64,000 nt of DNA from Acidobacteriota bacterium (lineage in GTDB: Bacteria > Acidobacteriota > Terriglobia > Terriglobales > Acidobacteriaceae): contig JAJXZL010000023.1 in assembly GCA_021780075.1 (NCBI GenBank), positions 1-64,000 on the forward strand, given 5' to 3'. The notes under the pieces were generated by a model. The model did not search any database. It had not been told where the DNA came from and saw only the letters and a program-made list of their open reading frames with translations. The translations under genes were made by a program, and so were the position numbers. Below are positions 11,445 through 56,475 of this stretch, in pieces (the first letter of the stretch is position 1; each line of letters starts with the position of its first letter).

Positions 11445-12539
11445 ATGGCACTTCCTGTCTTAACGACTGCTGAAGACGTGCGAGATCTCGTGCGATATCT
11501 CAAAACTAAACCTACAGGGGCAACCGTCAAGGAGGCGAAAGCCGCTGTGAAAAGGCAGGTTCTCGACCCCAGAAAAATGACAGCATACACGCTTTGGGGA
11601 TTCGTCGCGAAGGAAGGGGAGAGGCTTAAGCTGACGCAGCGTGGATGGGATTATGCTAGGAAACCTGACACAGAAGCAGAAGTCTTCCGCCGCGCCATCG
11701 ATTCGGTTGTACCCTATAAGTCGGTTTTGGAGTGGGCCAATCACCAGAAGCTCGATTCGATCACAAATGTAGACGTGGCGGCTCACTGGCATGAACACCA
11801 TTCCGATTCACTCGGAACCGAAAATGATGACACGATCAAAAACAACGCCGTCTGCTTCTTTCACCTCTGCGAAGCTGCGAACTTGGGCAAGCTCGTGGTC
11901 GGCAGAAAGGGTCAGGCGACGCGCCTGTCTCTCGAAAAGTCGCAACTAGCTCAATACGTCGAAGCCGGCCCCAGTTCTCCTCCTTGGGTCAGCACTTCAT
12001 CCGAATCAGAGGAGAAGGTTGAGGACGATTCGGCGAAAGAAGAACCGTCCCCTGAACCACTCACGCCTGCGTCCTCCGGGACGACCTTTCACGGAATTTC
12101 GACGCCGACTACCGTCAAAGTCTTCATCTCACACGGCAGCAACACAGATATCGTCGACCAGGTGCAGACGATGCTGGGCATCGCTGATATACCGAGCGAG
12201 GTTGCGGTCAAAGAGGAAACCTCTGCGATCCCCGTTCCGGAGAAGATATTTGGCGCGATGCGGAGATGCCAAGCAGGCATCATCATTGTAAGTGTTGACG
12301 AGAAGCGAAAGAATGGCGCGGGAGAGTTCACCATCAACGAGAATGTCCTGATCGAAATCGGAGCGGCCTTCGTGCTCTATGAGAAGCGCGTGGTTCTTGT
12401 GTGGGATAAGCGCCTTACGGTGCCCTCAAATCTCCAGGGGCTATATCGCTGCGAGTTTGAAGGCAATGAGCTGAGTTGGAGCGCGGGTATGAAACTCATG
12501 AAGGCTATTCGCGGATTCAAGAATCCGGAGCCAGCTTAA
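11445..12539 (+). CDS. Winged-helix/TIR-like (CAP12-type) protein, candidate defence NADase
   Basis: 364 residues. The C-terminal ~140 residues (about 223-360) read as the TIR-like fold formerly called predicted nucleotide-binding, now associated with CBASS/Pycsar effectors. It starts with strand VKVFISHGSNTD (from 224) and has a central IIIVS strand. The conserved ENVLIEIGAA segment places the putative catalytic Glu at about 304, followed by RVVLVWDKRLTVPSNLQGLY. The N-terminal ~165 residues are basic and helical and look like a winged-helix or DUF5343-like module. An acidic Ser/Pro/Glu linker (about 180-215) joins the two. AAGGGGA precedes the ATG. No cyclase gene is adjacent, so how it would be triggered is unknown. 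Codon use is less GC-biased than alaC, consistent with transfer. NAD cleavage is inference. Confidence 0.72.
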   Translation: MALPVLTTAEDVRDLVRYLKTKPTGATVKEAKAAVKRQVLDPRKMTAYTLWGFVAKEGERLKLTQRGWDYARKPDTEAEVFRRAIDSVVPYKSVLEWANHQKLDSITNVDVAAHWHEHHSDSLGTENDDTIKNNAVCFFHLCEAANLGKLVVGRKGQATRLSLEKSQLAQYVEAGPSSPPWVSTSSESEEKVEDDSAKEEPSPEPLTPASSGTTFHGISTPTTVKVFISHGSNTDIVDQVQTMLGIADIPSEVAVKEETSAIPVPEKIFGAMRRCQAGIIIVSVDEKRKNGAGEFTINENVLIEIGAAFVLYEKRVVLVWDKRLTVPSNLQGLYRCEFEGNELSWSAGMKLMKAIRGFKNPEPA

Positions 12540-32783: not shown

Positions 32784-33011
32784 TCTGGTGTACGCTCAGT
32801 TTCAGAGTGCAACAAGCTTAAATCTGACCGCATATCTGCGCCAAGCTCTTCGATCAAGCACGTGATTCTACGGGCGATCGCGGATATCGAGGGCACTGGA
32901 AGCCGAGCTCTGAGTGGTTTGTCGGCTAACCGGACATAACTCAAACTCACGCCTGCCACCCTTGTCAACCGAGCCGCAAAGCACACTCGCCCCTAACCCA
33001 CTCATTCCGCT

Positions 33012-33199
33012 AGCGCAAAACCTCGCCGCCACTTTGCAGAGTATTTCTCTCCCTAAGCGCACAATAAAACCATGCCCAGCCAGAGCCCAACGAAAGTGTC
33101 AGGAACGCCCCGGTCAGTGCCGACCCCCTACCCCCCTACCCCCCCCTCCCGGAGTGGCCAAAATCATCCGCAATTTCCCACGCGAAGTTCGCAGACCAT
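33012..33199 (-). repeat. G-quadruplex-bearing intergenic repeat, copy 1
   Basis: On the minus strand it reads TCTGC-AACTT, then a run of four or more G-tracts (33123-33150 complement, GGGGGGTAGGGGGG type). GACAC and ATTGTGCGC follow, and lastly the exact 17-mer GAGAAATACTCTGCAAA (33033-33049). The same modules in the same order form copy 2 at 54768-54965 on the plus strand. No gene in 32784-33237. Confidence 0.7.
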
Positions 33200-33237
33200 T
33201 GCACAATCTGTAATTCTTCGCCGCGATAGGAGTATGT

Positions 33238-54734: not shown

Positions 54735-54767
54735 GCCACTGCGGCGCCTGTCGCAAAGTTTGCCGAA

Positions 54768-54965
54768 ATGATCTGCAAACTTTTTGTGGAAAACCGCAAA
54801 TCCCTCTCAAAGGGGGGGTGGGGGGGGTAGGGGGTACCCATCCACGGATCAGGGGTTCGTGATCCGACTGGCACGGCATGGGCCGGTTGCGGATTTCCGA
54901 CACACTTTCCATTGTGCGCCGAAGCGGAGAAATACTCTGCAAATTGGGCGCAGGATTTTTTGAGG
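54768..54965 (+). repeat. G-quadruplex-bearing intergenic repeat, copy 2
   Basis: ATGATCTGCAAACTT, then G-tracts at 54812-54835 (GGGGGGGTGGGGGGGGTAGG type). GACAC and ATTGTGCGC follow, and the 17-mer GAGAAATACTCTGCAAA lies at 54927-54943. It is inverted relative to copy 1 at 33012-33199. A hairpin CAGGTGCC / GGCACCTG at about 55051-55075 lies beyond it. No gene in 54735-55158. Confidence 0.7.
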
Positions 54966-55158
54966 GGCTGGGTGAGGTCTGCCGGATGCTCATCCGATTC
55001 TGTGGCTGGGAGAGAAAAGACGGAATGGGTGAAGGGGAGTGGATTCCCAGGTGCCCAAAAGCGAGGCACCTGGGGCAACCATCTTCAGTGGTGGGACCCA
55101 CTTTGTAATCCCGGCACCTGGGCCGGCCCCCGACCATACTGGTTCTGTTGTTGGGCCT

Positions 55159-55743
55159 TCACTTATCCTCGTAATCGCGCATCGGATATGCATTCGGGTT
55201 AAAGCCTGCGATTTTGCAATGGTATTGAAATCGAAAGAATCGAAACTCCCAGAGCGCACGTGGAGTAGTAAATACTGAATCTAAGGGAGATAAAGTCGAA
55301 CAAATGTACTTCGGATCTAGAGTAGCGCGATCAACTCCAGTCGCGGTGTAAATATCCAATTGCATTAAATCGTCGATGATGTTGTGTCCGGCTGTTGGAG
55401 GCTTCGCAGGTATACCGAGGTGCTTCCATCGAACATCCAAATGAGAAAGCGCCTGAATCAAGTCCTTCATTTCTAAAGGAGAGATATATACAGTTCGTCC
55501 GTCTTTGAGTATAGGGGCAGTATTTTCTCTAGGATCATTTTTGCTCACGGCGCGGAACAGCAACGGTGGATGAAAGTAGCTTCCGTCGCCTGGCTGAAAG
55601 AACAAGCGAACGATCGCTTTCAGATCAACCACATCGCTCCGTTTGTGCTGTGCAGCATTCTGGGCAACCGCGAAAGATACGAACAAGAGAGGCACAAATG
55701 CGCTTGCCCTGAACAAACAGAGGAATCGATGCATATTCTTCAT
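55159..55743 (-). CDS. Exported protein, unknown function
   Basis: 194 residues from the ATG at 55743 (GAGGTG, six nt). Signal peptide MKNMHRFLCLFRASAFVPLLFVSFAVAQ. The mature part includes FFQPGDGSYFHPPLLFRAVS and a domain rich in aromatic residues at the C-terminus (FRFFRFQYHCKIAGFNPNAYPM). No family recognised; the frame extends upstream to 56076 but that part lies in repeat sequence and the RAYT gene. Confidence 0.6.
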   Translation of the reverse strand: MKNMHRFLCLFRASAFVPLLFVSFAVAQNAAQHKRSDVVDLKAIVRLFFQPGDGSYFHPPLLFRAVSKNDPRENTAPILKDGRTVYISPLEMKDLIQALSHLDVRWKHLGIPAKPPTAGHNIIDDLMQLDIYTATGVDRATLDPKYICSTLSPLDSVFTTPRALWEFRFFRFQYHCKIAGFNPNAYPMRDYEDK

Positions 55744-55837
55744 TGGTTCACCTCGATATTTGATCACTGTACAATCCATCCGGGGCGGGTGGCCGACCCT
55801 TCCCCCGTGCAAAGCTAACTTACCTCCGACGTGGGTG

Positions 55838-55880
55838 CCCCATCCTTGCGCGGACTTATCGCGCAAGGGTGGGTACCACA
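55838..55880. repeat. REP palindrome, class D, at the RAYT 3' end
   Basis: GTGGGTGCCCCATCC, arms CCTTGCGCG / CGCGCAAGG, then GTGGGTACC. Inverted relative to the copy at 56428-56475 across the RAYT gene; the same class as 12601-12705. The last RAYT codons run into it. Confidence 0.75.
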
Positions 55881-56401
55881 ACCCTTCGCCCATCCGGGTC
55901 TCGCCTTTGTTCCCGCTCCCACGCCGTCCAAAACGACTCGATCTCCACCGTACCGCGCAGCCCAGCCGAGTAATGACGACAACTCGACCACAGCCAGTCC
56001 TCAGGCTCTGCCACCAGCCCGCGCACAACCGGATTGCGATGCATATACCCGAGCTTCTCCGCACGCTTTTCTTCACTCCACACGTTGAAGTCGTAATACC
56101 GGCGCTGCCAGAATTGCGCCTTGTCCGCGCTCTTCAACTTTCTCGAAGTCCGCTGCTTCAACACCTGCAACGCCACTGCCAGCGACGCGATGCGGGTTTC
56201 ACTCAACAGCAGATGAACGTGCTCGGGCATCAAGACGTACCCCAGAACCACGAACTCCTACCGTCGACGCACAATTTCGAGCTCGTGCTCAAAGCACATG
56301 TAGGCTGCTGTTGCATTCAGCAGCGGCTGCCTGCGAAAGCAACTGAAGGTGATGAAGTGAAATGCACCGGCTTTCTGGTAACGGACGAGTTTACCCTTCA
56401 T
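55856..56401 (-). pseudogene. REP-associated tyrosine transposase (RAYT), interrupted by an amber codon
   Basis: A reading frame from the ATG at 56401 to 55856 (181 codons) encodes a Y1 transposase: MKGKLVRYQKAGAFHFITFSCF, HUH motif MPEHVHLLL, and YYDFNVWSEEKRAEKLGYMHRNPVVRG with the likely catalytic Tyr. At codon 48 (56258-56260 complement) TAG replaces the Tyr/Phe-type codon expected in VRRR-EFVVLGYV. The frame is otherwise undisturbed on both sides, so one base change would restore it. The part after the stop could start at a GTG, but would lack the N-terminal strand. Confidence 0.85.
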
Positions 56402-56427
56402 GAAGAAGAACGAGTGTACGTGGTTCC

Positions 56428-56475
56428 CACCCTTTCGGCCAACCGCAGGCCGAAAGGATGGGGCACCCTCATCTG
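56428..56475. repeat. REP palindrome, class D, at the RAYT 5' side
   Basis: GTTCCCACCCTTTCGGCC, AACCGCA, GGCCGAAAGGATGGGGCACC: a long hairpin with the GGATGGGGCACC end shared with the copies near 55.84 and 12.64 kb. Confidence 0.8.

What the first reader, a model, noticed from the sequence alone, without database searches (positions are those of the whole stretch)
33012..33199. G-quadruplex repeat element, copy 1 (minus orientation)
Four or more uninterrupted G-tracts (complement of 33123-33150) sit inside a ~190-bp element. The element has separately conserved modules and shares the 17-mer GAGAAATACTCTGCAAA with a distant second copy. Such ordered modules in two places, in opposite orientation, suggest a family of dispersed elements with possible regulatory or replication effects.
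Basis: seen in the sequence. Interest (0 to 1): 0.55.

Follow-up and report, generated by a model that had tools for sequence, protein, structure and literature searches.

The report
Polar G-quadruplex repeats at chromosome junctions
This soil bacterium carries some forty copies of a DNA element with a G tract that could fold into four-stranded DNA and a fixed 33-base core; most copies point along the locally G-rich strand and many sit where the chromosomes of related species have been re-joined, so they look like an undescribed site for handling or recombining the chromosome.

Summary
The finding is real and larger than described. The window's two copies belong to a family: 44 G-tract loci in this 3.88-Mb acidobacterial genome, 40 with the conserved core, and copies in related Acidobacteriaceae. 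Order: box A (AAATNATCTGCAAA...TGTGGAAAAC) - G4 tract - variable spacer - core ATTGTGC-N11-GWAATNNTCTGCAAA. At 12 orthologous sites G4 (96%) and core (84-94%) stay while the spacer drops to 58%, so the modules look selected. No conserved RNA fold, inverted ends or fixed gene context was found. Two new properties: (1) the element strand is the G-rich strand: far-flank GC skew is positive for 85 of 95 copies in three genomes, and higher right of the element than left. (2) Copies sit at synteny breaks: synteny continues further left in 15 of 18 anchored pairs but crosses the element in 6 of 18; of 21 broken, left-anchored copies, 9 have their right arm at another copy in the same polarity, 0 inverted. 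Best reading: a polar chromosomal site where a G4 and a bound core feed fork-linked recombination between copies. That mechanism is inferred; draft assemblies and lack of a whole-chromosome skew map limit it.

The parts
33166..33201 (-). copy 1, box A (degenerate, 25 of 36 match to consensus)
   Evidence: weak model hit 33167-33200, E 0.46
33124..33146 (-). copy 1, G-quadruplex tract GGGGGGGGTAGGGGGGTAGGGGG
33066..33123 (-). copy 1, variable spacer
   Evidence: model hit 33013-33088 E 2.2e-15
32919..33032 (-). copy 1, 3' tail shared with another copy (G000:C2)
   Evidence: 88% identity over 32919-33086
54766..54801 (+). copy 2, box A (36 of 36 match), with TGTGGAAAA at 54785-54793
54812..54834 (+). 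copy 2, G-quadruplex tract GGGGGGGTGGGGGGGGTAGGGGG
54835..54910 (+). copy 2, variable spacer
54911..54943 (+). copy 2, 33-bp core
   Evidence: model hit 54891-54966 E 1.6e-19
54944..55131 (+). copy 2, 3' tail with a CCCAGGTGCC...GGCACCTGGG hairpin, shared with the copy at G000:C33:112 kb; similarity of the two copies starts at box A and ends about here

Best explanation
It is a polar, dispersed, intergenic chromosomal element: box A, a G-quadruplex tract and a fixed-spacing 33-bp core. Shown: the module order, its spread in Acidobacteriaceae, retention of G4 and core at orthologous sites, orientation along the locally G-rich strand, and an excess of synteny breaks at the element with same-polarity joining of arms from two copies. 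Inferred: the strand orientation reflects fork direction; when a fork passes in the box A-to-core direction the G tract lies on the lagging-strand template, folds, and pauses or breaks the fork; the core and box A bind a protein (a DnaA-like or recombination factor); repair uses another copy as template, which normally is silent but sometimes exchanges spacers or chromosome arms.
For: Family and anatomy. Core spacing the same in other genera read (ATTGTGC, 11 nt, GWAAT): (31 and 33 searched with that spacing; 30 did not). Conservation in 12 orthologous pairs: G4 194/203 (96%), first part of core 79/84 (94%), second part 151/180 (84%), box A start 164/192 (85%), spacer 532/915 (58%), N11 of core 84/132 (64%), left flank 1110/1560 (71%). 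Of the 30 relatives' loci fetched first (of 97 core-model hits), 29 have enough sequence: 24 have a G4 and 25 a box A. TGTGGAAAA in box A: 27 of 28 (G181), 26 of 27 (G180), 14 of 31 (G000), and TGTGGAAA in none of the same 86 stretches of 36 nt just upstream; box A was picked by a consensus that contains it, so this is partly circular. Orientation: far flanks (1.5-5.5 kb) positive on the element strand for 35/40, 23/28 and 27/27 copies; right flanks 75/78, left 63/90; third codon positions positive in co-oriented (0.094) and anti-oriented genes (0.266), so not coding bias alone; right minus left positive in 31/36, 19/22, 14/17. Loci of 18 other named assemblies: right flank positive 24/28, left 21/28 (where my label says 20). 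Breaks; window copy 2 is collinear in G181, but in G180 synteny runs about 15 kb from the left (with one 4-kb insertion) and stops inside the element. Spacer exchange: in 11 of 51 ortholog pairs the spacer is no closer than a shuffled one to its ortholog but 0.70-0.83 alike a non-orthologous copy. Neighbouring cores within 2.5 kb: 18 same orientation, 0 opposite (some short-spaced ones are box A itself, 7 are more than 500 bp apart).
Against: No DnaA-box-like sequence was found in the 3.2 kb around dnaA, so box A cannot be called a DnaA site. No protein, no in vivo G4 and no transcript is shown. The skew rise is gradual (from about 2 kb before the element), was followed only to 7 kb plus the window, and in G181 falls again after 4 kb; the window has skew sign changes near 12 and 20 kb without an element. 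BO34 copies, none of which has a G4 within 260 bp upstream, show the same sign (right 16/19, left 13/18), so the skew is not tied to the G4. In 11 of 51 pairs the spacer is still 0.70 or more alike its ortholog, so exchange is not the rule. Arm switches rest on draft assemblies; the longest matching right stretch begins 0.2 to 5 kb from the element, and the exchange point inside the element was not resolved. Homologous recombination between any dispersed repeat would also keep polarity.
Confidence: 0.35

Rival explanations
1. A passive dispersed repeat: an old non-autonomous mobile element or relic that spread long ago; conserved parts are former recognition sites kept alike by gene conversion, and chromosomes rearrange at it simply because it is portable homology.
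For: 44 loci; near-identical pairs such as window copy 2 and C33:112 kb (94% over 392 bp); some spacers carry an ACCGGG-ACAT-CTGACA motif that resembles insertion-sequence ends (recalled), 8 of 10 genome hits lying in or beside elements (the other two were not examined); homologous recombination explains polarity-keeping arm exchange.
Against: No inverted ends or target duplication in the one pair whose borders were read; no predicted gene covers the element in the 32 copies; G4 and core retained at orthologous sites where the spacer is nearly randomised; at two sites where G000 shows no core, the G tract is decayed in one and interrupted in the other; strand orientation by GC skew.
Confidence: 0.35
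2. A polar motif placed on the leading strand for segregation or repair, like Chi, KOPS or architecture-imparting sequences, with no recombination role of its own.
For: Orientation along the G-rich strand, 85 of 95 copies; neighbouring cores point the same way.
Against: Far fewer and far longer than such motifs (recalled); skew differs between the two sides and changes sign over tens of kb in the window, so it is not a simple replichore-wide strand.
Confidence: 0.15
3. A cassette system like an integron: box A-G4 as leader, cores as recombination sites, genes or spacers as cassettes.
For: Arrays box A - G4 - core - gene - core in G180 and tandem cores in G000, head to tail; spacer exchange in some pairs.
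Against: The core has no attC features by inspection and no consensus fold; at the two arrays tested the sequence beyond the second core does not return to the relatives' right flank; the left-anchored bias seen with 1.4-kb flanks (29 left, 5 right, 5 both) vanished with 5.5-kb flanks.
Confidence: 0.05
4. A regulatory RNA, promoter or terminator.
For: Short distance of box A to the left gene (median 48 bp for co-oriented, 97.5 bp for opposed genes).
Against: No Rfam match there; consensus fold of the core region -0.28 kcal/mol with 0 compensatory pairs; of 32 copies the left gene is co-oriented in 13, opposed in 18, absent in 1; the right gene co-oriented in 7, opposed in 17, absent in 8; in the named loci the four arrangements are 15, 15, 15 and 9 of 54.
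Confidence: 0.08

Closest known systems
REP elements and their RAYT transposases (acidobacterial tyrosine transposases noted in PMC3733652, passages read)
   Same: dispersed, intergenic, many copies; REP-like hairpins and a RAYT-like relic lie beside copy 2
   Different: REPs are 20-40 bp palindromes with a tag (abstract of that paper); this core is not palindromic and is tied to a G4
Neisseria pilE G-quadruplex next to a recombining gene (PMC10094033, start of abstract seen in search listing; rest recalled)
   Same: a G4 beside sequence that is exchanged with other copies
   Different: there one locus and silent gene copies; here about 40 dispersed intergenic sites, no antigen gene
Polar leading-strand motifs (Chi, KOPS, architecture-imparting sequences; recalled, only a search listing seen)
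   Same: strand orientation follows skew
   Different: long composite element in tens of copies, at synteny breaks
Integron attC arrays / CALINs (recalled)
   Same: head-to-tail repeated sites, some with genes between
   Different: no attC motif or fold, no exact cassette gain at the two arrays tested

Membership tests
REP / BIME | short palindrome with GTAG or CGTC tag | tested here: not met
   core consensus is not palindromic; consensus fold -0.28 kcal/mol
REP / BIME | linked RAYT transposase | tested here: inconclusive
   a broken RAYT-like gene (Pfam Y1_Tnp, E 1.1e-6 for the piece after its stop) lies beside copy 2; other copies were not searched for one
MITE / insertion-sequence derivative | terminal inverted repeats and target duplication | tested here: not met
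   borders of one near-identical pair, L011/L012, show neither; no other pair was examined so closely
Integron attC / CALIN | GTTRRRY / RYYYAAC core sites and foldable attC | tested here: not met
   absent from the conserved columns of the aligned core (by inspection, motif recalled); no consensus fold
Integron attC / CALIN | integron integrase in the genome | not tested
   not searched
G-quadruplex-forming sequence | four or more G runs with short loops | tested here: met
   by sequence and score only; long G runs must supply the fourth run in copies with two or three; folding itself not testable here
DnaA-box locus (oriC, datA, DARS) | boxes matching the organism's DnaA site | tested here: inconclusive
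   TGTGGAAAA common in box A, but no boxes near dnaA to calibrate against
Structured RNA | conserved, covarying structure | tested here: not met
   (core region only; box A and spacer not tested)

The most novel reading that the evidence does not exclude
Each element is a site where DNA synthesis is repeatedly started or restarted in one direction (box A to core), a dispersed, G4-marked, unidirectional restart or secondary origin; the local upward GC-skew step and the arm exchanges are its footprints.
Probability: 0.1. Interest if true: 0.9.

Novelty: new variant of a known kind. Interest (0 to 1): 0.6.

Why it matters
A G4 that is kept at many orthologous bacterial sites, in one orientation and coupled to a fixed core, would be a natural test of whether G-quadruplexes have a dedicated chromosomal role in bacteria. 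If the elements steer fork repair, they would explain part of how acidobacterial gene order is reshuffled.

Tried and rejected
RNA element: no Rfam hit at the elements and no covariation in the core. Integron-like cassettes: looked attractive after (genes between head-to-tail cores) and after the 29-to-5 left bias, but longer flanks removed the bias and at the two arrays tested the right side did not return to synteny. Insertion-sequence ends: 8 of 10 genome places with the ACCGGG-CTGACA motif lie in or beside elements; the loci were not searched for transposases, so a partner is not excluded. Promoter or terminator: no orientation bias that holds in both samples. DnaA boxes: dnaA locus uninformative. 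3' hairpins as part of the element: variable in place and sequence, median score 13.95 downstream against 12.2 upstream, 40 copies, so treated as separate REP-like repeats. Viral origin: one hit in viral contigs, not followed.

Rows dropped and weak points: gene context used 32 of 44 copies (copies below the box A or core cut-off and one misaligned copy left out). The module-identity count used 12 ortholog pairs in which both members had a G4; two further loci with a G000 match, L276 and L290 of G180, have no G4 and were not in that count; one of the 12 pairs has a misaligned core (1 of 15). The spacer comparison used unequal spacer ends and was replaced. Searches use copies with long enough flanks. 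Orthologous copies in the three genomes are not independent; per-genome values are given. The arm-switch total of 9 counts some loci in two genome comparisons (about 7 distinct). Right flank of window copy 1 in G180 ends with its contig, so the element there could not be seen.

Full report
What was checked. The window is contig C13, bases 1-64000, of a 3.88-Mb genome in 53 contigs.

Family. A DNA search with copy 1 gave 18 matches in the genome; the 17-mer with up to 2 mismatches gave 20 places against 1 for the reversed control; GGGGGTRGGGGG gave 44 distinct loci. Of these 44, 40 have the core (at least 13 of 18 letters) and 35 have box A (at least 21 of 36); the locus that shows neither scores 10 and 13. 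A model of the core region (40 sequences) finds 56 places in the genome at E 0.01. Consensus: box A GCGAAATNATCTGCAARCNTTNTGTGGAAAACNGCAAAT, up to 25 bases, AAAAAGG plus the G tract, a spacer of about 60-190 bases, then TTCCATTGTGCG-NNNNNN-GGGGAAATNATCTGCAAA and a G/T-rich tail. The spacer comes in several types that are shared between loci.

Spread. In 150 genomes drawn from the family, 12 have the core at E 1e-4, in 5 of 79 genera (the strict filter loses weak ones). Of 77 cores with 260 bases upstream, 29 have a G4-like tract there; none of the 20 from Terracidiphilus MAG_BO34 has one, so 29 of the other 57 do. The same loose pattern is found in 3 of 492 stretches of 260 bases of the window and 109 of 4326 of the 80 named loci, elements included.

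Selection on modules. In 12 orthologous pairs the G tract is 96% identical, the two conserved parts of the core 94% and 84%, box A start 85%, while the spacer (58%) and the 11 free core bases (64%) are near what forced alignment gives. G-run alignment is lenient to length, so the figure is an upper bound, and two more loci lack the G4 in G180. At two sites occupied in a relative G000 shows box A but no core in the sequence read; its G tract is decayed at C33:92 kb and interrupted at C12:4 kb. Gene conversion between copies could add to the conservation and was not separated from selection.

Strand. Flanks 1.5-5.5 kb away are G-rich on the element strand for 35 of 40 copies in G000, 23 of 28 in G181 and 27 of 27 in G180. 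Coding direction does not explain it: 263 genes run with the element and 276 against it, and third codon positions are G-rich on the element strand in both sets (0.094 and 0.266). The right side is more skewed than the left; the rise starts about 2 kb before the element and holds to 6 kb after it in G000 and G180, but only to 4 kb in G181. In the window the cumulative GC skew has its minimum in the 4-kb bin that holds copy 1. In 18 other named assemblies the right flank is G-rich in 24 of 28 loci and the left in 21 of 28; in BO34, whose copies lack the upstream G4, in 16 of 19 and 13 of 18.

Breaks. With 5.5-kb flanks, G000 against G181: of 37 copies 7 collinear, 3 with arms from two different copies, 5 left only, 6 right only, 16 not traced. 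G000 against G180: 4, 4, 3, 3, 23 of 37. G181 against G180: 3, 2, 4, 2, 11 of 22. Of 21 copies with a traced left arm and a break, the right arm lies at another copy in the same polarity in 9 and in inverted polarity in 0. In 18 pairs with full flanks synteny reaches more than 3 kb further left in 15 but crosses the element in 6. Window copy 2 is the clearest: collinear in G181; in G180 about 15 kb to the left is collinear, with one 4-kb insertion, up to the element, and its right arm is found at another element on contig C133. Where inside the element the exchange falls could not be resolved. An earlier count with 1.4-kb flanks gave 29 left-only, 5 right-only and 5 both of 39; this bias was an effect of short flanks.

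Spacers. Among 51 ortholog pairs, 11 have a spacer at or below the shuffled level against the ortholog but 0.70-0.83 alike another locus, and 11 keep a spacer 0.70 or more alike the ortholog; the rest say little (my count).

What it is not, as far as tested. No Rfam family, no covariation in the core, no terminal inverted repeats in the pair read, no fixed gene context, no exact cassette insertion at two arrays.

Literature. Searches for G-quadruplex with Acidobacteria and repeat, REP with Acidobacteria, G-quadruplex with dispersed repeats, Acidobacteria with intergenic repeats or rearrangement, Terracidiphilus with repeat and G-quadruplex with interspersed repeat and leading strand listed no title or abstract start that describes this element; listings were capped and the library holds open-licence papers only. 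In PMC4060949, PMC6539912 and PMC12563890 (general G4 or DNA-structure surveys) I saw only passages found by term; none was about an acidobacterial repeat. PMC3733652 (passages) describes tyrosine transposases with terminal repeats in Acidobacteria, which fits the hairpins and the transposase relic beside copy 2, not the core.

Conclusion. The dispersed family, its anatomy and the retention of its modules are firm. Orientation by skew and position at synteny breaks are well supported within the limits of draft genomes. The functional reading, a G4-and-core site for fork-linked recombination, is the one I commit to, level with a passive-repeat rival, and is inference.

Noticed in passing
within window 55701-56420, minus strand: Broken REP-associated-type (IS200-like, Y1) transposase with an in-frame stop, next to copy 2; the segment around it is missing at the G181 orthologue and in the sister copy at C33:112 kb.
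   Followed up: partly
window 55046-55076 and about 56425-56470: REP-like hairpins CCCA...TGGGGCA with very different stems but similar feet; seen beside many elements in several genomes.
   Followed up: partly
window 11445-12539 (+): Protein with a CAP12/Pycsar-effector TIR domain (Pfam E 8.8e-16), a possible anti-phage effector.
   Followed up: no
window 4000-33000: GC skew changes sign near 12 and 20 kb where the core model found no element.
   Followed up: partly
L197 2250-2663 (JAJYZC FK5.bin103; L150 of G008 shows the same spacing): Three cores in tandem with steps of 197 and 184 bp and no long G tract just upstream.
   Followed up: no
L362, L343, L357, L350, L353 (G180): Head-to-tail cores with one or two predicted genes between them, for example a methyltransferase in L350.
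   Followed up: partly
L256 (end of G180 contig C66): The orthologue of the copy 1 right flank stops at what looks, by eye, like an IS3-type transposase gene.
   Followed up: no
L320 (IMGVR_UViG_3300021182_000196, locus bases 64-96): The only viral contig with the core; may be host DNA.
   Followed up: no
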